64,000 bases of DNA from Floccularia luteovirens. Taxonomy: Eukaryota; Basidiomycota; Agaricomycetes; Agaricales; Squamanitaceae. The stretch is from contig VSJF01000005.1 in assembly GCA_009739215.1 (NCBI GenBank), positions 1,426,001 to 1,490,000 of the forward strand, read 5' to 3'. Numbering within the stretch: position 1 is the first letter of the stretch; every line of letters begins with the position of its first letter. The notes beneath the pieces were generated by a model that worked only from the letters and a program-made list of their open reading frames with translations, had not been told where the DNA came from and did no database searches. Positions 6,357 to 20,433 of the stretch are shown piece by piece. The translations under genes were made by a program, and so were the position numbers.

Positions 6357-9300
6357 ATGGGAAATACTCATTCGGGGTCCGCATTTACGCGTTCAACTGG
6401 CGCATTGGACTCATTCGTTGTGGAATTGGCCGGTGATTTGGTCTATGAGAAGAGGTACGCCTGTTATATCTACTCGGTATTTCTGTGGCATAATCTATTC
6501 TCACAGCCTTGGATCCGCTCGATTCCTTAAAACCGCGAAATGTCGTCACCACAACGGACACCTGGTCGTTAAAATCTTCATAAAACCCGACCCCGGCATT
6601 TCCCTGCGGACGTATCACAGAAGATTGAAGAGTGAGTCATGCTTATCTATTAGTGTCAACTGGGATCTAACAGACTATTAGTTGATAAAGAAGCCTTAGC
6701 CGATATTGCAAACGTCTATAACTATCAAACTTTCGTAGAGACCGAGAAGGCTGGTTATATAATTCGTCAATGGGTTGCTAGTAATCTTTACGACCGTATA
6801 AGGTACGTCATTTGACAAAACCCAAACGCTGTCAGTCAACTGAAAGTTGTGTCCTAGCACCCGTCCTTTCCTTAGCATGGTTGAAAAGAGATGGATCGCC
6901 TTTCAACTTCTAAACGCATTGCGAGATGCCAAGAATCGAAAAGTTTCACATGGAGATATCAAGTCCGAGAACATTTTGGTGACATCTTGGAACTGGGTGT
7001 ATCTCACGGATTTTGCATCATACAAGCCTACGTACCTTCCACTGGATGATCCCGCAGATTTCTCCTTTTACTTCGACACGTCTGGAAGAAGAACTTGCTA
7101 CATTGCTCCTGAGCGATTTTATACAGCTGCGACTAATCCTGAAATAAGTGCGAAGAAGTATAAGATGTCGATGGAGGAAGCTGAAGGAAAACGAGATGGG
7201 AAGGTTACAGAATCTATGGATTGTTTTAGTGCTGGATGCGTTATTGCGGAGCTATTCTTGGAGGGAGCGCCACTATTCACGTTGAGCCAACTTTACAAAT
7301 ACAGAGAGGGGGAATATAGCGTGGATAACCACCTTGCCGGTATTGAGGACTCAGGTGTCCGAGTCAGTCCTTGCCATATCTGAATCAGAACATGGCTAAC
7401 TATGGTCAATAGAACATGATAAAACAAATGATTGATCTTGACCCAGCTAAACGTCCAACATTCGACACGCTACTTCATACGTCACGAGGGACAGTGTTCC
7501 CAGAAACGTTCTATTCATTTCTGCATAATTATGTATCATCGATCAATGACTTGTCAAACAACATGCCATTTGCAAATAGTGGCCATTCGACGTCTCTCCC
7601 ATCTGCACCTTCAACAATAGGACCATCAACAGTCTCTACAAATCGACATGTCTCTTCCAATGCTGATGCTCCTAATAAGGACAGTCCCCAAGATATGTTA
7701 CCTAGCGACTCTGACCATAGGTTGGAAAGGATTTGGTCGGATTATGAGAGCATCGAGCCATACATTGTTGTGGATGCTCGTGAAGACAATCCAATACAAA
7801 TGGATGTGAGGATCGACTACTCACCCGCATATCATAGTGTATCAAAACCCTTCCAGGTTCGAGAAACACATTTTTCAGTGGTCGTAAACTTAATGTCCTC
7901 AGGATATCTTACCCGTTGAATTGCATATACCAAATCGCCAGTCAAGTCTACATAGCGCCTTACCTGGGAGGAGATATGCGGCCATTGAAGGTATTCTCCC
8001 TTTTGTCAAAAAAGTACCTTACCAGTCACCCACGCCGCGTTATTAGATGGCCCGGCATTGATCGTTCTGGCGCTAATCACTTCGAATATTCGGAATTCAT
8101 CGATGCCCAGTTCTAAAACCCGAGGGTTGGACGTCTTTCTTGCTCTCTCATGCCATTTGACAGACGAAGCAAAACTCGATCGCATGATTCCATACATCAT
8201 CGAGTTACTTCATGATGATGCCGCAATTGTTCGTCTAGCAGCGTTGCGAACGTTGATACAAGTGGTATGTAGTTTACACTCTTAGTAGGTGGGTGCTAAT
8301 TATCACACACAGCTCATGTTAGTAACGGTCGTTACACCATCAAACGCCGCCATATTCCCGGAGTATATCATCCCAAATATCAGACATCTTGTCCAAGATC
8401 CTGAGATATCAGTGCGGTGCACATATGCACAATGTATCGTACAACTTGCCGATACTGCGGTCAGATTTCTTGAAATGGGTCAGGCTCTAAAAGCCCACGG
8501 AGCATTCAATATAGCACCAGATGCCCAAGATTATGGGGACACACATTATGAGGTAAATCATTCCTTAGTTCTCGTATTTTCTTCCAGTTAACATTCGACT
8601 AGATCTCTTATGACGCAAGTATGCAAGAATTGCAGAATCATATCCAGGAACACCTGTCTGCCATACTTATGGATCCATCTAGTATTGTCAAACGAGCTGT
8701 TCTCCATGACATGTCATCGCTCTGTATATTCTTAGGGCGACAAAGGACCAACGATGTGTTACTAAGTCATATGATCACATACTTGAATGATAGGGACTGG
8801 TTACTTCGATACGCGTTCTTCGAAAGCATTGTAGATGTTGCAGCCTGTGCCGGTGGGAGAAGCTTGGAGGAATACATACTACCATTAATGGTCCAGGCAT
8901 TATCTGGTGAGTCCAAATGTTCCATAATATCGCTGCACTTGATTTCAATTCCCCTGGTCAGATGTGGAAGATACAGTTGTTGCTAGAGTTCTGACTGCAC
9001 TAACGAGCCTTTGCGAATTGGGGCTATTCCAAAAGATGCGAATTTGGGAATTGATGAGTGCGACCCTAGGATTTTTATATCACCCAAATATCTGGATACG
9101 ACAAGGTGAGCGAGTCAGGGAAAAGTATATTTGTCGCATACATTAAAAATAAATAGGGGCTGTTGCATTTATTTCTTCTGCTGCATTACATCTACCTCAT
9201 AGCGACATCTGGTGCATTTTATATCCATCACTGAGACATTTCTTGAAGTGCGACATCGCTACCATTGACGAACAGAGCTTGCTCAGAGCAATGAAACCCC

Positions 9301-12213
9301 CTGTATGTTTCTACATTATGTTTGTCTTTTGGTATACTTATCGGACTTACTAGCTGCGAAGACAAATCCTTGATGCTTCAGTACAATGGGCGATGAAAAG
9401 CGACAAGACAAGTTTCTGGAAGGGACCAAGGAGGGGAAACAATAAAATGGAATCGCCCCGGGAAAGTATGGTATCAATGCGCAAAACTGGAAATAACACC
9501 ATCTCAAGGAATAAATCCGAAGAGTATGTCTGTGTCGTATGTTGTTTGTTCAACTTCTTATCATATGTTCGCTTTGTAGGGATGAAGTACAACTCAAAAA
9601 GTTGCAGCAATTGGGAATGACCTCAGGTGATGAGAGTAAAATTCTAGCTATGCGAGACTATATCATCAAACTCGCTAATGCGACCTCCAGGTATAGTTTT
9701 CAAGCGTATAAATACTACGACTAAGTCTTACCGTCATTTACAGCTTTGCGGCTCGCTTGAGTTACGAGCCAGATACAGGGAAAAGTCTAAAAGTGATTGG
9801 AGATGTTGAATTACAAAAACTTGGGGTGGTGCCTCAGACAGTGTTTCTTAAACATCGTGCTCCAGATTTCACACCTCGCTCCTCCCGACTAAACTCTTTA
9901 TCTATCAAGAAGGACCAACACTGTTTCATCATCTCGGACCCCGATACTCAGCCCACCACGCTCGAATACACTGGCGAGCATTCATACCCAAGGCACTGCG
10001 CCATTCGAAGACCTCCGTCGCAGGCTGGCTACCATCAATGGATCAGTTTCATCCGTCGGTCTTTCTCATACCCCTCGAGAGCCACGGAGTGCTCTCTCCC
10101 CTTTGCAAACATCCTCAAGTTCATCTTTAGCCGTGCCTTCGTTACCAATCACACAGGAAAGACCAAGTAGTCCGACCGAATCGGTTATCTCGACATCGAA
10201 TTCTGTCTCATTCAATCCTCTAAGCCGCTTGCAAATCGGAAGTATGGATGGACAAAAAGCTGCACCTGCAGTTGGATCCTCTAAAATGAATGCAATCGGG
10301 CTTTTGGAGGCACATTCTAAGCTTCGTTCAGATGGATCTCCAGAAAGGTCAGGGAGGTCATCTCCTATATCAATGCCAACAGGTCACCGATCACAACGCC
10401 GGGGATTACCATCCTGCTATAAACATTTCAACTTATGGTACGCTTTGAGTATCGTCACTTCAGTCAACTGAGCCCCTGATTGCGCAACATTTTGAAAGAT
10501 GGACAGGAACCTGGGATCAGTAACTTGTTAGAAAACCTTTATCTTGACAATAATCGGGAGTTACAACTTGATTTTGGGCCCAAAGTTCACGAGGGTCCGA
10601 TCAGACGACGCAATGCCGTGAGACACACTTTCGCGCCCCGAGATGGTACTTCCAAGGGCGTACAGAAGCATCACTAATAGCTAATCTCACCTCACATTCT
10701 GAGGCGATTACAGGCTTCGCTGTGTCCCCTGACCATATGTTCTTTGTTTCTGCTTCGGACGACAAGACTGTCAAGGTATGGGACACTGCCAGATTAGAGC
10801 GTAATGTCACAAGCAAGCCTCGACATACATACGGCCAACATCACGCTCGAGTCAAATGTGTTTGCATCCTCGAAGGGGTTCATTGCTTTGCAAGTGCAGC
10901 AGATGATGGTAGTTTGCATGTTGTTCGCGTTCATATTAATCAGGGTGGGGCCTTGCCGAAATATTCTAAACTACAAGTTATTCGAGAACATCAGCTTGAG
11001 ACTGTTGGCGAGTATATCACCTGCATGACTCACTACAGTACAGGTTACGTCTCAGTGATAGGAGAAAATTGACACATTCATCGAGATGATAATTTTACAG
11101 ATACCACGTCTAACCTTATATATGCGACCACACATTCGGTGATTACCGCTCTTGACTTACGGACAATGCGGGTTCTGCAGACCATGGAGAATCCACGACA
11201 CTACGGACCTATCACATGTATATGCCTTGATCGTAAACGTTCATGGATAGTCGTGGGGACTTCAGCTGGGATACTGACGTTGTGGGATAAAAGATTTGGA
11301 TTGTTATTGAGAAGCTGGCACGTTGGCGCAGGTGCTATCGGCCGGGCAGTCCGAGTTCATCAATGTGTCATCCATCCTTCAAAGGGAAGGGGTAAATGGC
11401 TTGTGGTTGCAGTAGAGACTGCGCGAAAGTCCCCAGACCGTACTACCTCAACCTTGATAGAAGGTCTGGGATATCGAAAAGGCAGTCCTTGTGGAGACTT
11501 TCGTATCTCGAATTGGACCACCGACAGACCCTCTCCCCTGACCCGCAAGAGATTCCTGGACAAGAAGCTGAAACAAGCCCAGCAGTCGCTATCGCTGCTC
11601 TCGTACGTTCACGACAGGGAGGAGAGGCTTTGGATAGGAGGGCGTCGCGGAATCCGGGTGACGAACTAATACCTTCCCCAGCCCCCGACGTTCGCGCAAT
11701 TGTAGCGGGGTCTGACTTTGGTGGATTTTCAGCGATTCATCGGTCCCAATTCGGAGAAGTCATCTCTGAGACACCATCTCGTACTTCAGGTAAAGGATTC
11801 TTAATCACTGGTTCCGAAGATAGAAAGATGCGGTTGTGGGACCTGGGTGGCTTGGAGAGGACAGCTGTACTAAGTGGAACCGAAAATGAGCATGAACGGC
11901 CTTCGTATGGGTACGTGTCCTACGTCTTATCGGTCACATAGATAAGTCAGTTGATTGTAACAATTTTTTTTCTAGAACATTTACGAATGGTTCTGCGTCA
12001 ACGTTTATGGAAAGTTGGCCTGAAAACAGCGGAAGTGGTAACAGACCTCCCCAGCGGATGTCCCTGATCACCCATAATCAGCAGAATCTATTAAGGTCCC
12101 ACCAGGATGTGATCATGGCCCTTGCTTGTATTGACTCACCATTTCGAGGTGGTATTATTAGTGGCGATCGTACTGGTGTAATTAAGATATGGCGTGTGGA
12201 CCAATTAGAATAG
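6357..12213 (+). CDS. VPS15: VPS15-like protein kinase, regulatory subunit of the Vps34 phosphatidylinositol 3-kinase complex
   Basis: The start at 6357 gives MGNTHSGS, with Gly2 placed for N-myristoylation as in Vps15. First exons are 6357-6454, 6507-6631, 6682-6802, 6858-7362, 7413-7856, 7903-7990, 8047-8264, 8313-8552, 8603-8906, 8962-9105, 9157-9302, 9354-9523, 9580-9690 and from 9744. The kinase catalytic loop reads SHGDIKSENILV and the metal loop LTDFASYKP, the atypical HGD/DFA form of this family; IKQMIDLDPAKRPTF closes the domain. HEAT-type repeats follow (LTDEAKLDRMIPYIIELLHD, TVVTPSNAAIFPEYIIPNIR). WD40 blades run from about 10700 (MFFVSASDDKTVKVWDTARL) to the end (GGIISGDRTGVIKIWRVDQL), with last exons 11101-11910 and 11976-12213. 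The family recruits Vps34 for autophagy and endosomal sorting. The region 9840-11550 needs frame changes that I cannot all explain with normal introns, so this copy may be damaged or contain sequence errors. Confidence 0.85.
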
Positions 12214-12544
12214 TGATAACAGGATAGATACTGTTTAACCGCCGTTAGATTTTTTTTCCTGTCTTTTCCTAACCCTATGTGATTCTCGTATGACTACGCA
12301 TATAATCTTTCGCTTCTTCTCCTATTAGGGGTCCGGTAGGTAGGGTGGGTCACACTATTATGGTAAGCTCAACATCTACTTCTACGTGGTCCTCTGATAC
12401 CGATCCGTCTACAAGCTTCTGCGCAGCCTGCTCTCCTATACCGATTCGGAATAAGTTAGGGATACAGAAGCTTTACTTACTTCTCAAGGAATGCTTTCCT
12501 TTTATACTGGTAATTCGAAAAAGTTGTCATATGCGCGCAAGTTC
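12214..12544. other. 3' flank of VPS15
   Basis: No gene is seen. Bases from about 12330, around the words gtgggtcacactattatggt and acaagcttctgcg, have a diverged counterpart near 19160-19260 after the VPS15 pseudogene. The duplicated segment therefore includes VPS15 3' flanking DNA. Confidence 0.5.
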
Positions 12545-13252
12545 TGTAACTTGATGCTTGTCGACAAAACTTGATGGTAGCATGGAGATATTATGATTTT
12601 CACACCAAACGTCTGCTGTTTGATAACATACTGAATGGAACGTTGAAGCGCCGGGTATGACCCGCGGGTCAACCACGAGGCAACTGTGATAGCCCAGCAA
12701 GTTCCTTAAACTAATATGGGTTGATTGGGAGTAAACTGTAAATGAGCTTGAAATGGGATGCAGGGACCTCGATAAAATCTTCCCATGAGAAAACTATCAT
12801 ACTGACTCGGGCGAAGAGCTGTAAAGAGATGAGTGTCATGATCCAGAAGTTTGGACAAAACATATGTAGACTGTCAACACCAGTCAATAGCAGAGACAAA
12901 CATTGGGGTGCTCTTGAACAGCACGTGTAAAAAGAAAAAAAAAATTAGTTCAGCAGGTTGCTGAAGTGTGATATATTCGTAGAGTAATGGAGTTGGGGTA
13001 TAAGCAAGGGATGATCGATGGGCCTTGACTCGAACTTTGCTGTTTCAGAGCAGGTGCCAAGCGATGCGCCATTTTATGGATGCAGTGTCATGTGATGATG
13101 AGGATCCAAATGGTGACGGTGTAAATACGCGAAAATAAGATTTGAGAAAAGGTATATATACAGCTTCATCCATACTGAATTTCAATAAGCAAAGTTTCTA
13201 CATAACCAACAACTTCATCTGCCTACAACACTCAAGTTCTACAACTTTAAAT
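12545..13252 (+). repeat. Long duplicated 5' flank of metallothionein copy 1
   Basis: This 0.7-kb upstream region resembles the upstream regions of the other two metallothionein genes. Shared landmarks, with small differences, are a Tgtctgctgtttgata-like word, a ctgactcggg(c/t)aagagctgt word, a ggtgccaag word, and a ttattttatggatgca or ccattttatggatgca word about 170 bp before the ATG. It is a duplicated promoter-sized block, not a coding sequence. Confidence 0.65.
13153..13160 (+). promoter_or_regulatory. TATA box of metallothionein copy 1
   Basis: The octamer TATATATA lies 93 bp upstream of the ATG at 13253. The same octamer-type box is at the same distance in copy 2 and about 84 bp upstream in copy 3, so its position is conserved. 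Confidence 0.6.
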
Positions 13253-13539
13253 ATGATCGTGCGTATCTATTGCTCTAAGCAATTTGTTCATGTGCTGACC
13301 AAATTCTTTGCTATTTTGTAGTCTACGTACGTTGCAACAGTGCCTTTGGTTTTCATTCATCCTCATAATTGTCCTTTCATATTATAGCGTCACCGTTCCA
13401 GTTAACAACGCCGGCTGCGGCTCTTCTACCTGCACTTGCACCGAGTGAGTATCTCCTTCTAACTTAACACTTTGAATTGCTAATAAAGTTAAACCCCTTC
13501 TGTAGCTGCAAATGCGAGCCAGGCAAATGCAAATGCTAA
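13253..13539 (+). CDS. Metallothionein, copy 1 (33 aa, 7 Cys)
   Basis: Four exons are read: 13253-13258, 13322-13326 (only 5 nt), 13388-13444 and 13506-13539. Joined, they encode MISTVTVPVNNAGC then a cysteine-rich tail ending CEPGKCKC. The seven cysteines at 14, 19, 21, 24, 26, 31 and 33 give C-x4-C-x-C-x2-C-x-C-x4-C-x-C. Seven Cys in about 30 residues, with no aromatic residue, is typical of fungal copper-binding metallothioneins, which bind Cu(I) or other soft metals in the cytosol. The 5-nt exon is required: skipping it puts a stop right after the join. The same structure occurs in the two neighbouring copies, which supports it strongly. The metal bound cannot be told from sequence. Confidence 0.85.
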
Positions 13540-14454
13540 ATGGCTAGCGCTAGGCGCAGACAATGAACCGAATTTCCTGCTATGCGAATTCAATTCTGTA
13601 CATGTCCTGTTATGATATATGATAAATGATTTGTGATTTGTATTGAAGTGAATCTTATCTTGAAATAACCTGTATTGATTTGATGGAGTTGATGAGATAA
13701 GAAAACTGTGATATGATCCAGCAGCCAAACGAATATTTTCAATATGTATCCATTCATCATTCAATTTGCTCCCATATTTCAACTTACTCTGGATCATCAA
13801 TGAGCCTCTGAGTTTGAGAAGATGCAGGAAGAATGCTTCCTGCTTGGAAGGCTATGGCTGCACGCCGTCTTCTACAGCGACAGCACTGGCTATGTTTCTT
13901 GGAAGCTTGGAATCTTCAGAGAATCTAAGAAGTGTATTCAATTCCTCCGAAAAGGTGCAATTTTCCCTTCTGTTGCCGCCCTCGCTGCCTTTCCACTTTC
14001 TTATGTCCGCTAATGCGGACTTTGCTAACACAACGATGGTTTCCGTGTCGATGTCAGATAGATTCTGGGAGCGCACCTGGGCAGAGCTTTGTTGCCACTT
14101 CATTTTTGCACGGGCCGTAGCAATCGTGAAGAGGCATGTCACTAATTAAGAATGTAGGCCTTACATTTCAATTCCTATCTAAGTGCGTCACAGTCTCATC
14201 TACACAAGAAGATTTTGTTGGATCAAACTACAAGACAGGCGGGGGCGGAGATGGGTTAGCAAATATTATGTTGAGTGATGATCAAGTGTCATTAAAGTTC
14301 TCATTTCAGGAACTTCACGTTCCCTATTAGATGACTAGAAATAAGAGCCTGTACAAAAATCAGGTCCACTAGCGCGTCACTATTAAAGGTACTAGTTGGG
14401 TATGATAATGCCCATTATACTAAACACGTGAAAAACGCTTGCTAAATAGCGGAA
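13540..14454. other. Region between metallothionein copies 1 and 2
   Basis: It contains the 3' flank of copy 1. An open frame on the minus strand at 14142-13852 reads like protein (AQVRSQNLSDIDTETIVVLA, FSEELNTLLRFSEDSKLPRN), but no domain is recognised and no flanking exons could be placed. It may be a remnant exon of another gene. The rest shows nothing. Confidence 0.3.
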
Positions 14455-15042
14455 ATGAAGCGTGATACTTGTCGAGATTGATGGTGGCATGGGCAAATCA
14501 CAATATGTCTGTTGTTTGATAATATATTAAATGGGATTTGAAACATCGGGCATAACCTGACTCATCCATGAAGCAAATATGAAATTGTAGCCTGATCGCG
14601 CAACAGTTCCAAAAATATGAATAGGCCTGAAATTGACTCGGGCTAAGAGCTGTGAGGAGTGGGTGTGGCAAAATGCCATTATAAGCACTAAGAAATTAAT
14701 TCAACACGTTGACGGTATGTGATAAGTTCATGGAGCAATTAAGTTGGAGCAAGGACTGCGCCTGAGTCGAACTTGGGCACTTCCATTTGGTGTTTGACGG
14801 GGTGCCAAGTGGATGCGTTATTTTATGGATGCAAGGTCATGTGATGCGCTATTTTATGGATGCAGCTGAATGCGGTGAATTTGGATGCAAGCGGATACAA
14901 GTGGCGTTGATGTAAATACGTGAAAATAAGATTGAAGAAAGATATATATAGCCTAGTCTTTGCTAAATTTCAATAAGCAAAGTTTCTACACAACCAATAA
15001 CTTCATCTTCCTACACAACACTCAACTTTTACAACTTTAAAC
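14455..15042 (+). repeat. Long duplicated 5' flank of metallothionein copy 2
   Basis: It is related to 12545-13252 and 19325-20141. Near 14815-14870 it carries the block with the tail attttatggatgca twice within about 50 bp, while copy 1 has it once. So an extra local duplication has occurred in this promoter. Confidence 0.65.
14942..14950 (+). promoter_or_regulatory. TATA box of metallothionein copy 2
   Basis: An ATATATATA run lies 93 bp upstream of the ATG at 15043. The words after it (aatttcaataagcaaagttt) are nearly the same as after the TATA box of copy 1. Confidence 0.6.
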
Positions 15043-15346
15043 ATGATCGTGCGTATCTAATAGCTATCGCTTCAAGCAATTTACTCATGCGCTGATCTGA
15101 TTTTTTGCCATTTTATAGTCTACGTACGTTGCAACACCGATGCTTAATGTTTATTCATCCTCATGATGGGTCTTTCGTATCACAGCGTCACCGTTCCAGT
15201 TAACAATGCCGGCTGCGGCGCTGCTAACTGCACCTGCACTGAGTGAGCATCTCCCTCTAACCCTGCTTGATACCGAATCACTAACGAAATGAACCTTTTA
15301 CAGCTGCAAGTGCGAAAAGGACAAATGCACCTGCGGTGCGAAATAA
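15043..15346 (+). CDS. Metallothionein, copy 2 (36 aa, 7 Cys)
   Basis: Exons are 15043-15048, 15119-15123 (5 nt), 15186-15242 and 15304-15346. The product begins MISTVTVPVNNAGC like copy 1 and keeps all seven cysteines at the same positions; the tail reads CEKDKCTCGAK, three residues longer. Exon 3 is 57 nt in all three copies and the introns start with the same words (gtgcgtat, gtacgttgcaa, gtgag). The lysine-rich tail differs from copy 1 (EPGK to EKDK), which could alter metal loading but is not interpretable from sequence alone. Transcription is probably metal-inducible, by analogy with the family. Confidence 0.85.
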
Positions 15347-16095
15347 ATGGGAATTCTTGTTCTGTTTTGATACACGATTTGCATGATTTGTATTGATAAT
15401 GAATCTTATATTGATTTGGAGTTGACGTGATAAGATAAAATGTAATGATTGTAAGCGAGAGCGGAGTTCTAACTGATCACTAATGAAAAACCTTTAGTCT
15501 GATGTGAGTTTTGACTCTCAGACTTAAACTCCGCGCGGCAGCTTGCGGGTGCACCAAACGGCCGGGAACGAGACTAAAAAACCTGGCTGCGAAGTGGAGA
15601 GTGAATTCATTCTTGTGACAGACCGAAAGATGTAATGTATGGAGACCTCTGTGCATAAGCAATATACCATATTATTCAAGCCACGCTATGCACTTAATAG
15701 AGCTTGTCCGAAGTCAAGCTTGCCATACTGGAATTTGAATTTCTTGGACGACCAAGTGGAGGTGACCGGCTCCCACATTCGGAGTACATCATCTTTCAGC
15801 TGGTCACACTGGTTCTGCTACATCATCAAGTCCCCTATATTTTTGCTCTAATCGGTTTTCACGCCTCATTCATGTGAGAAATGCGGTGTGTCAGGCATAA
15901 CGGGCCTCCAAGCAAAACAAGGATAGTGGTAAGTAAGCACTACTATCAGATACCTAGTGTTGAAAGTCTTTGAAAGAATCATTTTGCGGCACACCCATAC
16001 TATAAATCTTGGGCCCCTGGCTTCGTACGCTTGCCAGAGTTATCTATATAGATATGTATTAACTTGCTCATTAATTTTCTCGTGAGATCTTTTTG
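15347..16095. other. Intergenic region between metallothionein copy 2 and the VPS15 pseudogene
   Basis: No supported gene. Short open frames at 15480-15662 (-) and 15639-15851 (+) have no recognisable features. The boundary of VPS15 homology lies near 16095. Confidence 0.4.
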
Positions 16096-19050
16096 GAGGG
16101 TAACTCTGGTCAATAAAACCTGACCAAATGATTTATCTTGAGCATCCAACACGCTGCTTTGCTCACCACGCGTCCCAGAAATTGTTATCCAACCAAAATA
16201 TCATTTGGCAACATTCCAGCTAGTGATCAAATATTTGCAAACAATAGCTATTCGCGGCTCTAACATCATCTGTGTCTTTCAACAGCAGTAAGTACCTCAA
16301 CAGTCTTCACAAACTCACGTGTTTCATCCAATGTTGATGCTTCCAATTTGAAGGATGGCCCACAAGAGACATTACCTAGCGACTCTGACCATAGGTTGGA
16401 AAGAATCTGGCCAGTTCATGAGAGTGTCGAGCTGTACATTGTTGCGGACACTCGTGAAGACATTGTAATGGAAATGGACGTGAGTCTCGACATTTCGCCA
16501 TAGCGTATCGAAACCTTCCAGCTTCGAGAAAACACACTTTTTGAATGGCTGTAAACTTAACGTTCCCAGTATATTGCTGCCTTGAGTACCTGTTGAGTTG
16601 CTCCTTACCTAACTTGGGAGATATGCGGCTACTGAAAGTATCCTCCCCTTCTTTTAAGTACCTCACCAGTCATGTTGATGGCCGGAATTGCGCTATAAAA
16701 ACCCAAGGTTGGACGTCTGACGCCTTTCTTGCTCTCTCATCCCATCTAACAGACGAAGCAAAACTCTATCGCATTAATCCTTATGTCGCCGATTTACTTC
16801 ATGATGATGCAGCAACTATTCGTTTAGCAGTGTTAAAGAGCATTGGTATAAGTGGTATGTAATATATACTCTTGCCAGATCCGTGTAACTCACCATGCGT
16901 AGCCCGTGTTAGTAACTGTGGTTACACCTTCGAACACCACCGTATTCCCAGAATATATAATCCCAGATATCACACATCTCGTCCAAGATCCTGTCCACCT
17001 AACACCTATACACTGCAACCATAAGCAGCTGTCACTACCACTGTGTGGTGCCTATATCTTTTACAACTTGTCGACACTACGGCGAGACTTCATGAAACGG
17101 GCCAGGCTCTAATGTATCACGAAGGATTCAATATAGATGCCCAAGATTATGGGGACATATCATACAGTAAATCATACCCCTGTCCTCTTGTTCTCCCCTA
17201 ATTCACCATCATCAGATCCCTTATGATGCAAGCATGCAAGAATTGCAAAGTCATATTTAGGACATAAGTCCATCACACTTATAGATCCTTCTGACGAACT
17301 GTTCTCCAAGACATGTCGCCGCTTTGTATTTCCTTCTGGCGACGAAGGACCAACGATGCTTTACACATATCTATATGGACTGGGTACTTCGATATGTCTT
17401 CTTCGAAAGCGTTGTAGATGTCGCAGCGTATGGTAGTGGAAGAAGCTTGTGGAATACATTCTACCATTAATGGTCCAGGCACTATCTGGTGAGTCCCAAC
17501 CTTCCATAATATTGTTTAGCTTGGTAACAATTCCCTCGGTCAGCTATGGAAAACACAGTTGCTGCTAGAGTTTTGACTTATGTTCTTTGTTTCTGCACCG
17601 GACGAAGTCTGCCAGGATATGGGACATCGCTAGACAGTACGTATTGTCACGAACAATGCTTGACATATACAAGACCGAAATGCTCGAAGAAGTCCGCTGC
17701 TTTGCAAGTGTAGCAGCAGATGGTGGCTTGCATTTGCCCGCGTTCATATTCACTATTAATCATCTGCCGAAATATTTCAAGCAAGAGTTATTCGAGGACA
17801 TCAACTTGAGACTGTTGGGGTGTTTACCACTTGTACGACTCATTGCAGTACAGGTTCGTCTCATGAGTAGGAAATTGACATCTCAACTTAGATGATAATT
17901 TTACAGATACCGTATCTGATCTTATATGCGACGCCACACTCGGTGATCACCGTTCTTGACTTGGAACAATGCGGGTTTTGCAGACCGTGGAGAACCCGCG
18001 ACACTATGAATCTATCACATGTATAGTCTTGATCACAAACGTTCATGCATAGTTCTTGGGACCTCGGCTGGGATAATGACATTGTGGCACCAACGTGCAA
18101 GCTACTCAAACAACCCAAATCTCTTCGCCATCTGCCGGACAATCCAAGTTTGTCAATGTGTCATCCATCATTCAGAAAGAAGGGAGGGGTGGCTTATCGT
18201 TGTGGCGGAGATACACTAAAGCTAATGTACCAGATTACTTCAAACCAAATGGAGGTCTGAGATATTGGGCCCAAGGCTGTTCTTTCGTATCTCGAATATC
18301 CATAATTCAAAAGAAGGGACGGGTGGGTTATCGTTGCGGCGGAGATGCACGAAAGCCAATAGACCAGATTACTTCAAACCCAATGGAGGTTTGGGATATT
18401 GGGAAGGCTGTTCTCGGAAAAAAATTCGTACCTCGAATTGGACCACAGATTGACCCCGAGCGGCCTTCTCCCTGACAAACAAGATGTCCGCTTCTCCCGT
18501 ACGTTCACAGCAGGGATTGATAGAAGGGCATCATGGAGCTGGAAGACGAACTGATATATGCCCCAACCCCCGACGTTCGCGCAACTGTAGCAGGGTCTAA
18601 ATTTGGTGGATTTTCAGTAATTCACAGGTTTCAATTCTGAGAAGTCATCTCGTACTTCAAGTAAGGGATTCTTAATTCATAGTTTATGAGATAGGAAGAT
18701 GCAGCTGTGGGGCCTGGGTAACCCGGAGAGGATAGTTGCAACAGCGGAACCGAATATGGGCGTGAAAGGCCTTCGTCTGGGTACGTCTTTTGTGCTCTGC
18801 CAGTCACATAGATCGTTCTGTTGATTGAAATGTTTTCTAGAACATTTACTTTACCAATGGTTCTATACCAACAGTTATCCTGAAAACAACGGAAGTGGTA
18901 ATCGACCTCCCCAGCAAATGTCCTCGATAACCCAGAATCAGCAGAATCTATTATTATTATTATGATCCCACCAGGATGTGATCCCGTCTCTTGTTTGTAC
19001 CGACCCACCATTTAAAGTGGTATTATTAGGGGCGAACATATGTAACAAGA
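16095..19050 (+). pseudogene. Decayed partial copy of VPS15
   Basis: The sequence follows VPS15 from about 7400 to 12213 in order, with many substitutions, stops and indels. Clear stretches are 16360-16480 (like 7690-7810), 16690-16860 (like 8100-8265; AFLALSSHLTDEAKLYRINP, LLHDDAATIRLAVL), 16906-17000 (TVVTPSNTTVFPEYIIPDIT), and the last WD40 part at 18840-19030. Kinase exons 1-4 are absent. At about 17580 sequence like parent 8995 joins directly to sequence like parent 10738, so some 1.7 kb, including the end of the HEAT region and the linker, is deleted. A 134-nt segment is tandemly repeated (18170-18303 and from 18304). No long frame survives. It has no start codon region and is almost certainly non-functional. 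Confidence 0.85.
18170..18437 (+). repeat. Tandem duplication of 134 nt inside the VPS15 pseudogene
   Basis: Unit 1 begins at 18170 (attcagaaagaaggga) and unit 2 at 18304 (attcaaaagaagggac). Both continue with a shared word, tatcgttg(t/c)ggcggagat, then cagattacttcaaacc. The functional-looking VPS15 has this part once (about 11380-11500). The two units differ by scattered substitutions, so the duplication is not recent. Confidence 0.75.
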
Positions 19051-19324
19051 TAGGTATTGTGATACTGCTGCTAGATCTTTTTTTCTCTTCTCCCATACCT
19101 CAATCCCGCGCGGTGCTCATATGACTGTACAGATAATTTTTGGCTTCCCTTCTGCCGTTAAGCAATTCGGTAGGCAAGGTGAGTCGCTCTATTATGGTAA
19201 GTTTGATATCTATTTTTCCGTGCTCTTTCGATGCCGCTTTGCCACAAGCTTCTGCGTCGTCTGATCTCATGTGGTAATGATTCAAGTCACTCAAAACAAT
19301 AGCTGTCATATGCATGCAGGTTTC
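19051..19324. other. 3' flank homologous to the VPS15 3' flank
   Basis: About 19160-19260 matches 12330-12430 loosely. This shows that the duplication unit ran from inside VPS15 through its 3' flank into the metallothionein region. No gene is seen. Confidence 0.5.
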
Positions 19325-20141
19325 ATGACTTGATACGTACAGAAAACCTCATGGTGACGTGGGGATCTTGTGGCGTGTCTGCTATTTTGATATCATTTGG
19401 AATGTGATGTTCAAAGCGGTGTATGTACTTAGATTGTTCCCTAATAGTCAATAGTTCCACAAACCAATTTGGGTTGATTGTCCACGTCCTAGGCTTTGAA
19501 ATGGACCGTCCATAAAAATTTCCCATGATGTGGATGTGAGAAACCATCTTACAGACTTAGGCTAAGTGCCAGGAGGCGTGGGTATCACGACAGCTAGAAG
19601 TTTGACAAACTGTCAACGCCGGCCAACAGCAGATACAAACATCGCGGGACTCTCGAACTGCGCCAAGGATCACTTCAGCACCTTGCCGAGATCTATGCGA
19701 TCTATTTTGACTCGAACATGCGCCCACTTGCTGTTTGAGGAGTATTATACTAGTCATGTGGTAATAAAGTATTATTGATTATCTTTGGCCCTGGTGGTAC
19801 TAGTGGGTCTCCATACGTTTGAATTTCTGGCAGAAAAAGTATTGAGATAAATATCCGGTATTCCTCACACCTTCTTCTTGGAGAAAAAAGGAAACTTTTA
19901 TTTACCGAAATGGGTGAGGAGGAGATCTGCTTCTGCCAAAGATAGGAAGTACTGAACAATTCGTGAGAAACACCAAACATTTTCTAATCTGTACCTTGTT
20001 CTGCTAGAAACAGCTATTAGCGTTGAGTAAATATGCAAAAACAGCATTTTAGAAACGTATATATACAGCCTCATTCATACTGAAGTACGATAAGCAGAAA
20101 CCAATAATTTCATCTGTCTAAACAACACTCAGCTTTTAAAC
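19325..20141 (+). repeat. Long duplicated 5' flank of metallothionein copy 3
   Basis: It is the most diverged of the three upstream blocks. It shares gtctgct-ttgatat, gggttgattg, gaaactgtcaac-like and cagcagatacaaacat-type words with 12600-12900. It lacks the attttatggatgca block near the TATA box that copies 1 and 2 have, so its control may differ. Confidence 0.55.
20058..20065 (+). promoter_or_regulatory. TATA box of metallothionein copy 3
   Basis: The octamer TATATATA lies 84 bp upstream of the ATG at 20142, followed by cagcctcattcatactgaa, close to the word after the copy 1 box. Confidence 0.55.
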
Positions 20142-20433
20142 ATGATCGTGCGTATTCATTGCTCCGGGCAGTTTATTCATGCGCTGACCTGATTGTTTGC
20201 CATATTATAGTCTACGTACGTTGCAATAGCACCGCTTGGTGTTGATTTATCCTCATAATGGATCTTTCGTATTATAGCGTCACCGTTCCAGTTAACAACG
20301 CCGGCTGCGACTCTACTTCCTGCAACAACGCTGAGTGAGCATTTCCTTTTAACCCTGCTTGAGACCAGGTCGCTAATGAAGTGAACCGTTCTGTAGCTGC
20401 AAGTGCGAGAAGGGCAAATGCACTTGCAAGTAG
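20142..20433 (+). CDS. Metallothionein-like protein, copy 3 (34 aa, 6 Cys)
   Basis: Exons are 20142-20147, 20211-20215 (5 nt), 20278-20334 and 20397-20433. The product starts MISTVTVPVNNAGC as in the other copies, but the central CTCTD of copies 1 and 2 is CNNAD here, so Cys21 is lost and six cysteines remain. The tail is CEKGKCTCK. All splice sites and the reading frame are intact, so it is not an obvious pseudogene. It may be a subfunctional or decaying copy, or one tuned to another metal. The last two are guesses. Confidence 0.8.

What the first reader, a model, noticed from the sequence alone, without database searches (positions are those of the whole stretch)
13253..20433. Three-copy metallothionein cluster with a conserved 5-nt microexon
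Three genes (13253, 15043, 20142) have identical architecture: exon 1 of 6 nt (ATGATC), exon 2 of 5 nt (TCTAC), exon 3 of 57 nt, and a short last exon. The 5-nt exon and its flanking gtacgttgca donor are unchanged in all three copies although the introns have diverged. Without the 5 nt the frame breaks straight away. A tiny internal exon in a 33-36 aa gene means over half the primary transcript is intron, and its inclusion could be a control step for metallothionein output.
Basis: partly seen in the sequence, partly recalled or inferred. Interest (0 to 1): 0.8.

Follow-up and report, generated by a model that had tools for sequence, protein, structure and literature searches.

The report
Metallothionein genes with 5-nucleotide microexon
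A mushroom-type fungus carries a small family of metal-binding protein genes whose coding sequence very probably includes a 5-nucleotide exon, but the same genome appears to use equally tiny exons in ordinary housekeeping genes, so the exon is probably routine splicing rather than a special control switch.

Summary
The three genes (13253-13539, 15043-15346, 20142-20433) share exons of 6 + 5 + 57 nt plus a short last exon and encode Cys-rich peptides of 33, 36 and 34 aa. A fourth copy with this layout lies 585 kb away. From the shared ATG, one splice model only restores the frame in all four copies: ATGATC|TCTAC|exon 3. TAG|TCTAC|GTACGTTGCAA is the longest invariant run (19 nt; intron interiors are 52.5% invariant). 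Copies A and B match the heptaCys motif of agaricomycete metallothioneins (PMC12508003); C and D have six Cys.

The control step is not supported. In the same genome GAPDH, actin and calmodulin need internal exons of 5, 6, and 7 and 12 nt. Skipping TCTAC gives MIRHRSS* in 4 of 4 copies, but intron retention also gives stops. Fungal microexons down to 1 nt are in print (PMC12940212).

Against: in copies B, C and D an ATG inside intron 2 opens the same frame unspliced. Transcripts and other fungal genomes could not be examined. Verdict: very probably real, ordinary for its genome, new only as a detail of gene structure.

The parts
13253..13258 (+). MT copy A exon 1 (ATGATC, 6 nt)
   Evidence: first ATG downstream of the TATA box
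13322..13326 (+). MT copy A exon 2, 5-nt microexon TCTAC
13388..13444 (+). MT copy A exon 3 (57 nt)
13506..13539 (+). MT copy A exon 4 with stop; protein 33 aa, 7 Cys
15043..15048 (+). MT copy B exon 1
15119..15123 (+). MT copy B exon 2, microexon TCTAC
15186..15242 (+). MT copy B exon 3
15304..15346 (+). MT copy B exon 4 with stop; protein 36 aa, 7 Cys
20142..20147 (+). MT copy C exon 1
20211..20215 (+). MT copy C exon 2, microexon TCTAC
20278..20334 (+). MT copy C exon 3
20397..20433 (+). MT copy C exon 4 with stop; protein 34 aa, 6 Cys
13063..13084 (+). 22-bp upstream element GATGCGCCATTTTATGGATGCA, copy A (candidate promoter element)
14812..14864 (+). two copies of the 22-bp upstream element, copy B (14812-14833 with 1 mismatch, 14843-14864)
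13153..13160 (+). TATA box, copy A (TATATATA); also 14943-14950 in copy B and 20058-20065 in copy C
   Evidence: read directly from the sequence

Best explanation
This is a small family of agaricomycete metallothionein genes (three clustered copies and one distant copy) whose coding sequence is cut by three introns of 61-70 nt. The second coding exon is a true 5-nt microexon (TCTAC) that gives codon 3 and the first two bases of codon 4 and sets the phase for the Cys-rich exon 3. The two flanking introns are most likely both removed as a matter of course by intron definition, as seems to happen around the equally tiny exons of this genome's GAPDH, actin and calmodulin genes. Shown by sequence: exon layout, frame requirement from the shared ATG, conservation in four copies, and tiny exons needed for conserved housekeeping peptides. 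Inferred: constitutive splicing, metal binding, and control of output mainly at the promoter.
For: Same layout in 4 of 4 copies. Frame-restoring models from the shared ATG number 10, 1, 6 and 4 in copies A, B, C and D, and one is shared by all four. Longest invariant run is TAGTCTACGTACGTTGCAA, 19 nt; the next is the start of exon 3, 18 nt. Intron identity between copies is 0.74-0.79, close to the 77-81% ungapped identity, worked out from the counts, of the four largest pieces of a linked VPS15 duplicate beside copy C. Introns 1-2 carry indels of 7, 2, 1 and 6 nt and exons 1-3 none (the last exon does have gaps). 12 of 12 MT introns have GTRNG donors, YAG acceptors and a YTNAY motif 8-45 nt from the end. 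Copies A and B match C-x4-C-x-C-x2,3-C-x-C-x4-C-x-C (PMC12508003, section read). In the same genome GAPDH needs a 5-nt exon ATTTG for MSVKVGINGFGRIGR, actin a 6-nt exon TTGCTG for KAGFAGDDAPR, and calmodulin 7- and 12-nt exons for MADQLSEEQISEFKEAF.
Against: No transcript evidence. In copies B, C and D (3 of 4) an ATG inside intron 2 opens the exon 3 frame without any splicing (MGLSYHS-, MDLSYYS-, MGLSYCS-VTVP...); copy A lacks it. The copies are paralogues, so their agreement is partly shared descent. The 5 nt alone would be invariant with naive probability 0.04, exon 3 as a whole is hardly more invariant than introns 1-2, and between C and D coding identity (0.77) is below intron identity (0.79). 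No homologue was found in the protein collection and no match in viral or prokaryotic contigs, so exon 2 could not be compared across species. Copies C and D have six Cys, so part of the family may be under relaxed constraint. The housekeeping exons rest on recalled human-type proteins and one spliced-alignment script.
Confidence: 0.84

Rival explanations
1. Regulated on/off microexon: inclusion of TCTAC is controlled (for example by metal). Skipping gives MIRHRSS* and a transcript open to nonsense-mediated decay, so splicing sets metallothionein output.
For: Skipping stops at the same codon in 4 of 4 copies. The invariant block extends to +11 of intron 2. 7 of 7 fourfold sites in codons 3-9 are invariant. 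A glucose-controlled 20-nt microexon is known in Trichoderma Xlr2 (PMC11121469, passages read).
Against: Tiny exons occur in genes of the same genome that are expected to be constitutive. Intron 2 lacks CTRAY, but so do 24 of 44 reference introns. Retention of intron 1, 2 or 3 also gives a stop, so the truncated product is not special.
Confidence: 0.06
2. The invariant block is an RNA or DNA regulatory element rather than an exon, and the protein is made from another transcript form, for example one that starts inside intron 2.
For: Conservation runs beyond the splice-site consensus (GTACGTTGCAA). In copies B, C and D an ATG in intron 2 is in frame with exon 3. An 8-bp helix between the two donor sites can be drawn in 4 of 4 copies and has high pairing probability in A and C.
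Against: Copy A has no such ATG, and no other model is shared by all four copies. The shared ATG is the first after the TATA box in 4 of 4 (read). Random pairs of GTRNGT sites form 8 or more contiguous pairs 11% of the time; the helix is weak in B and mixed in D.
Confidence: 0.05
3. Family of partly decaying duplicates: only one or two copies work, and the shared microexon reflects ancestry or gene conversion more than constraint.
For: Copies C and D have six Cys; C lacks the 22-bp upstream element; D ends in CTLLNTWR without the last CxC; a promoter-only fragment exists on contig C21.
Against: Introns have diverged to 74-79% identity while exon 1, exon 2 and the first 16 nt of exon 3 show no change in four copies. 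Copy D is 585 kb away.
Confidence: 0.1

Closest known systems
Short agaricomycete heptaCys metallothioneins (AcMT2 of Agaricus crocodilinus, LbMT1, PiMT1 and others; PMC12508003)
   Same: 33-36 aa, one Cys-rich domain, C-x4-C-x-C-x2-C-x-C-x4-C-x-C in copies A and B, duplicated genes, small introns (about 50 bp reported there, 61-70 nt here).
   Different: AcMT2 is reported with three exons and AcMT1 with four; here there are four exons with a 5-nt second exon. Exon sizes of the published genes are not in the text that I read, so the boundaries cannot be compared.
Single-nucleotide exon of Fusarium CYP621A (PMC12940212)
   Same: Ultra-short internal exon in a fungus, inferred from phase incompatibility and a conserved AG...GT block between two short introns.
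   Different: 1 nt, a P450, an ascomycete, confirmed by reads.
Microexons of Phanerochaete chrysosporium P450 genes (PMC1184071; shortest exon 6 bp)
   Same: Basidiomycete, very short exons between small introns.
   Different: Different gene family; 6 bp or longer.
Xlr2 microexon switch of Trichoderma virens (PMC11121469)
   Same: Internal microexon whose length is not a multiple of three.
   Different: 20 nt, with reported condition-dependent inclusion and two protein isoforms; nothing of that kind is shown here.

Membership tests
Agaricomycete short heptaCys metallothionein | heptaCys motif C-x4-C-x-C-x2,3-C-x-C-x4-C-x-C: copies A and B | tested here: met
   2 of 4 copies match (motif from PMC12508003).
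Agaricomycete short heptaCys metallothionein | heptaCys motif: copies C and D | tested here: not met
   6 Cys each; they are diverged paralogues of A and B, not full members by this test.
Agaricomycete short heptaCys metallothionein | length up to 35 aa for short forms | tested here: inconclusive
   33 and 34 aa for A and C; B is 36 and D 38 aa, just over.
Agaricomycete short heptaCys metallothionein | sequence profile match (Pfam) | tested here: inconclusive
   0 families for 4 of 4 proteins at E up to 1; peptides this short may escape profile searches.
Agaricomycete short heptaCys metallothionein | binds metal and protects metal-sensitive yeast; metal-induced transcription | not testable with these tools
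   needs experiment
Microexon (internal exon of about 30 nt or less, spliced into mRNA) | frame from the shared ATG requires the exon, and both flanking introns have splice signals | tested here: met
Microexon (internal exon of about 30 nt or less, spliced into mRNA) | present in transcripts | not testable with these tools
   no RNA reads held
Regulated microexon switch (Xlr2 type) | condition-dependent inclusion | not testable with these tools
   no RNA reads held
Regulated microexon switch (Xlr2 type) | both isoforms encode a usable protein | tested here: not met
   skipped form is MIRHRSS* in 4 of 4 copies

The most novel reading that the evidence does not exclude
The 5-nt exon is a splicing-based on/off valve for metallothionein: inclusion of TCTAC is the metal-sensed step, and the invariant TAG|TCTAC|GTACGTTGCAA block is the cis element that reads it.
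Probability: 0.05. Interest if true: 0.65.

Novelty: new member of a known kind. Interest (0 to 1): 0.24.

Why it matters
Exons this short are often missed in annotation (passages of PMC12940212 and PMC11121469), and metallothionein genes are often misannotated because of short exons (passage of PMC4755600), so genes of this type may be absent from fungal gene sets. The finding says that their N-terminal MIST and reading frame depend on a 5-nt exon. The genome also seems to splice 5-12 nt exons in GAPDH, actin and calmodulin, which makes it a convenient place to ask how intron definition copes with exons too short to hold two spliceosomal contacts at once.

Tried and rejected
Donor-donor hairpin: CGTRCGTA at donor 1 can pair with TACGTACG at exon 2/donor 2 in 4 of 4 copies. 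Rejected as evidence: 11% of random pairs from 245 GTRNGT sites of the window form as long a run, and pairing probability is high in A and C, low in B and mixed in D.

Weak branch site of intron 2 as a sign of control: no CTRAY in 4 of 4 copies. Rejected: 24 of 44 distinct introns from eight reference loci lack it too.

A further gene copy at C18:1378495 (17-nt pattern, 2 mismatches): taken as chance; I saw no exon 3 on reading L009, and neither nor one search matched there. With up to 3 mismatches this pattern has 41 places against 62 for the reversed control, so loose matches mean nothing. GTACGTTGCAA has 15 exact places in the genome, four of them the MT genes (control 8), so it is not MT-specific by itself.

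Solved-structure match (E 8.8) is chance. Pfam: nothing. Protein collection: no candidate. Viral and prokaryotic contigs: no match. Rfam at gathering scores: nothing in the window. The bacterial promoter scan has no bearing on a fungus.

Alternative donor 4 nt downstream (9-nt exon): gives MISTYRHRSS* in 4 of 4.

Literature: 10 searches. No listing showed a microexon in a fungal metallothionein; the one fungal paper holding both words (PMC8022950) uses them in unrelated places. Subscription journals are mostly not held, so this is no proof of absence. I recall, from no call, that basidiomycete GPD genes have tiny 5' exons.
Full report
What is there. The window lies in a 27.0-Mb genome of 22 contigs. 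For a SNF5-family neighbour, 120 of 310 hits were listed, most without an organism; the named ones are Arthromyces matolae (73% identity; Agaricales) and Melanogaster broomeanus (65%), so the source is an agaricomycete, perhaps of the Agaricales. The three genes have the reported layout: ATGATC, intron of 63, 70 or 63 nt, TCTAC, intron of 61, 62 or 62 nt, 57-nt exon, intron of 61, 61 or 62 nt, last exon of 34, 43 or 37 nt with the stop. The products are MISTVTVPVNNAGCGSSTCTCTDCKCEPGKCKC, MISTVTVPVNNAGCGAANCTCTDCKCEKDKCTCGAK and MISTVTVPVNNAGCDSTSCNNADCKCEKGKCTCK. A whole-genome DNA search gave four matches and a protein search the same four. The fourth, copy D (L003:1501-1808), is 585 kb from copy C on the same contig, keeps the 6 + 5 + 57 layout, and ends in CTLLNTWR instead of a final CxC.

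Is the microexon real? From the shared ATG, with any GT and AG, introns of 35-140 nt and one or two introns, copies A, B, C and D allow 10, 1, 6 and 4 frame-restoring models. The longest invariant run of the four-copy alignment is TAGTCTACGTACGTTGCAA (19 nt); next comes AGCGTCACCGTTCCAGTT at exon 3 (18 nt). Intron-interior columns are invariant in 52.5% of 158, so a 19-nt run has a naive probability of 5e-6, and the 5 nt alone 0.04; these figures ignore that the stretch was not chosen in advance. Indels of 7, 2, 1 and 6 nt occur in introns 1 and 2, none in exons 1-3. The shared ATG is the first ATG after the TATA box in 4 of 4 copies (read).

What speaks against it. When other ATGs are allowed, copies B, C and D (3 of 4) have an ATG inside intron 2 that opens the exon 3 frame with no splicing at all, giving M[GD]LSY[HYC]S-VTVP...; copy A lacks it. 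A transcript starting there could make a Cys-rich peptide without the microexon. Region by region, exon 3 (39 of 57 invariant) is hardly more conserved than intron 1 (39 of 63) or intron 2 (40 of 61), and C and D are more alike in introns (0.79) than in coding sequence (0.77): conservation is concentrated in the block described and in exon 1, not in all coding sequence. No transcripts were available.

Neutral yardstick. The first MT gene lies downstream of a VPS15 gene (6847-7380 and 11139-11666 match VPS15/PIK3R4 chains). A collinear copy at 16098-19268, with shorter stop-free stretches and about 1.7 kb missing, precedes MT copy C; most simply, copy C came by a segmental duplication of part of VPS15 plus MT, and the VPS15 copy has decayed (inference). 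Its four largest aligned pieces have 77-81% ungapped identity to the parent, worked out from the counts. MT introns have 74-79% between copies, so they drift about as fast as that copy while exons 1 and 2 have not changed.

Is it special? I spliced eight reference loci of the same genome (calmodulin, a calmodulin-like gene, beta-tubulin, GAPDH, actin, three histone H4) against recalled human-type proteins. Internal exons of 12 nt or less appeared in 4 of 8 loci; I checked by eye the 5' parts of three. GAPDH has ATGTCC (6 nt from the ATG; the script's span gave 9), then 20 nt, then a 5-nt exon ATTTG, giving MSVKVGINGFGRIGR. Actin has a 6-nt exon TTGCTG inside KAGFAGDDAPR. Calmodulin has 7- and 12-nt exons inside MADQLSEEQISEFKEAF. 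I did not enumerate alternatives for these, but the peptides recovered are the conserved ones. GAPDH repeats the MT pattern of a 6-nt first exon and a 5-nt internal exon, with an unremarkable GTCAGT donor after the 5-nt exon, so no extended motif seems needed. The 45 introns (44 distinct) have a median of 55 nt; 31 of 44 have GTRNG donors, 41 of 44 YAG acceptors, 20 of 44 a CTRAY motif and 44 of 44 a YTNAY motif. MT intron 2, without CTRAY but with YTNAY, is within this range.

How it most likely works. Both flanking introns are removed constitutively, probably one after the other because two splice sites 5 nt apart cannot be bound at once (inference). The microexon supplies the end of MIST and the phase for the Cys-rich exon. 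Skipping gives MIRHRSS* in 4 of 4 copies, and retention of intron 1, 2 or 3 also ends in a stop. Splicing errors from the shared ATG therefore lose or shorten the protein, which does not by itself show control. Output is more likely set at the promoter: the 22-bp element GATGCGCYATTTTATGGATGCA with up to 3 mismatches has 7 places in the genome, of which 1 is upstream of copy A, 2 of copy B, 2 of copy D, 1 in a promoter-only fragment on contig C21 and 1 elsewhere; the pattern read backwards has 1. Copy C has none. Common descent can explain part of this sharing. A role in metal response is inference.

Against known things. Copies A and B fit the heptaCys motif of agaricomycete metallothioneins; C and D do not (PMC12508003; abstract, passages, and sections 17, 19 and 22 part 1 seen). 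That paper reports three exons for AcMT2 and four for AcMT1; exon sizes were not in the text I read. Fungal microexons are known: 1 nt in Fusarium CYP621A (PMC12940212, passages), 6 bp and more in Phanerochaete P450s (PMC1184071, passages), 20 nt and regulated in Trichoderma Xlr2 (PMC11121469, passages). A 10-exon metallothionein with exons of 63-105 bp is known in Tremella (PMC4755600, passages). None of the 10 literature searches listed a metallothionein microexon in a fungus.

Verdict. Observation confirmed. Microexon very probably real. Special regulatory meaning not supported and made less likely by the housekeeping genes. Transcripts and cross-species comparison remain the open tests.

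Noticed in passing
G000:C22:1333100-1335400 (L059), G000:C17:2500700-2503200 (L063), G000:C21:709400-711400 (L057): GAPDH, actin and calmodulin genes of this genome contain internal exons of 5, 6, and 7 and 12 nt; tiny 5' exons look like a habit of this genome.
   Followed up: partly
window 16098-19268 versus 7394-12435: Collinear, apparently decayed partial duplicate of a VPS15 (PIK3R4) gene, followed by MT copy C; the duplication probably carried the metallothionein along.
   Followed up: partly
window 13063-13084, 14812-14833, 14843-14864; L003 about 1304-1359: 22-bp upstream element nearly confined to the metallothionein promoters (5 of 7 genome places with up to 3 mismatches, 1 more in a promoter fragment); candidate metal-response element; not found at copy C.
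   Followed up: partly
L037:4821-5144 (minus strand; G000:C21): Orphan metallothionein promoter fragment, 77% identical to window 14628-14971, ending just past the TATA box; no metallothionein match on that contig.
   Followed up: partly
L003:1501-1808: Distant fourth copy keeps the microexon but its last exon reads CTLLNTWR instead of ending in CxC.
   Followed up: yes
intron 2 of copies B, C and D (L003 for D): An ATG inside intron 2 is in frame with exon 3 without splicing in 3 of 4 copies; an alternative start cannot be excluded.
   Followed up: no
spliced codons 3-9 of all four copies: 7 of 7 fourfold-degenerate sites are invariant although intron interiors are about half variable; could be constraint at RNA level or chance (naive 0.01).
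   Followed up: no
window 18163-18283 and 18298-18414: 121-bp tandem duplication (87% identity) inside the VPS15 duplicate.
   Followed up: no
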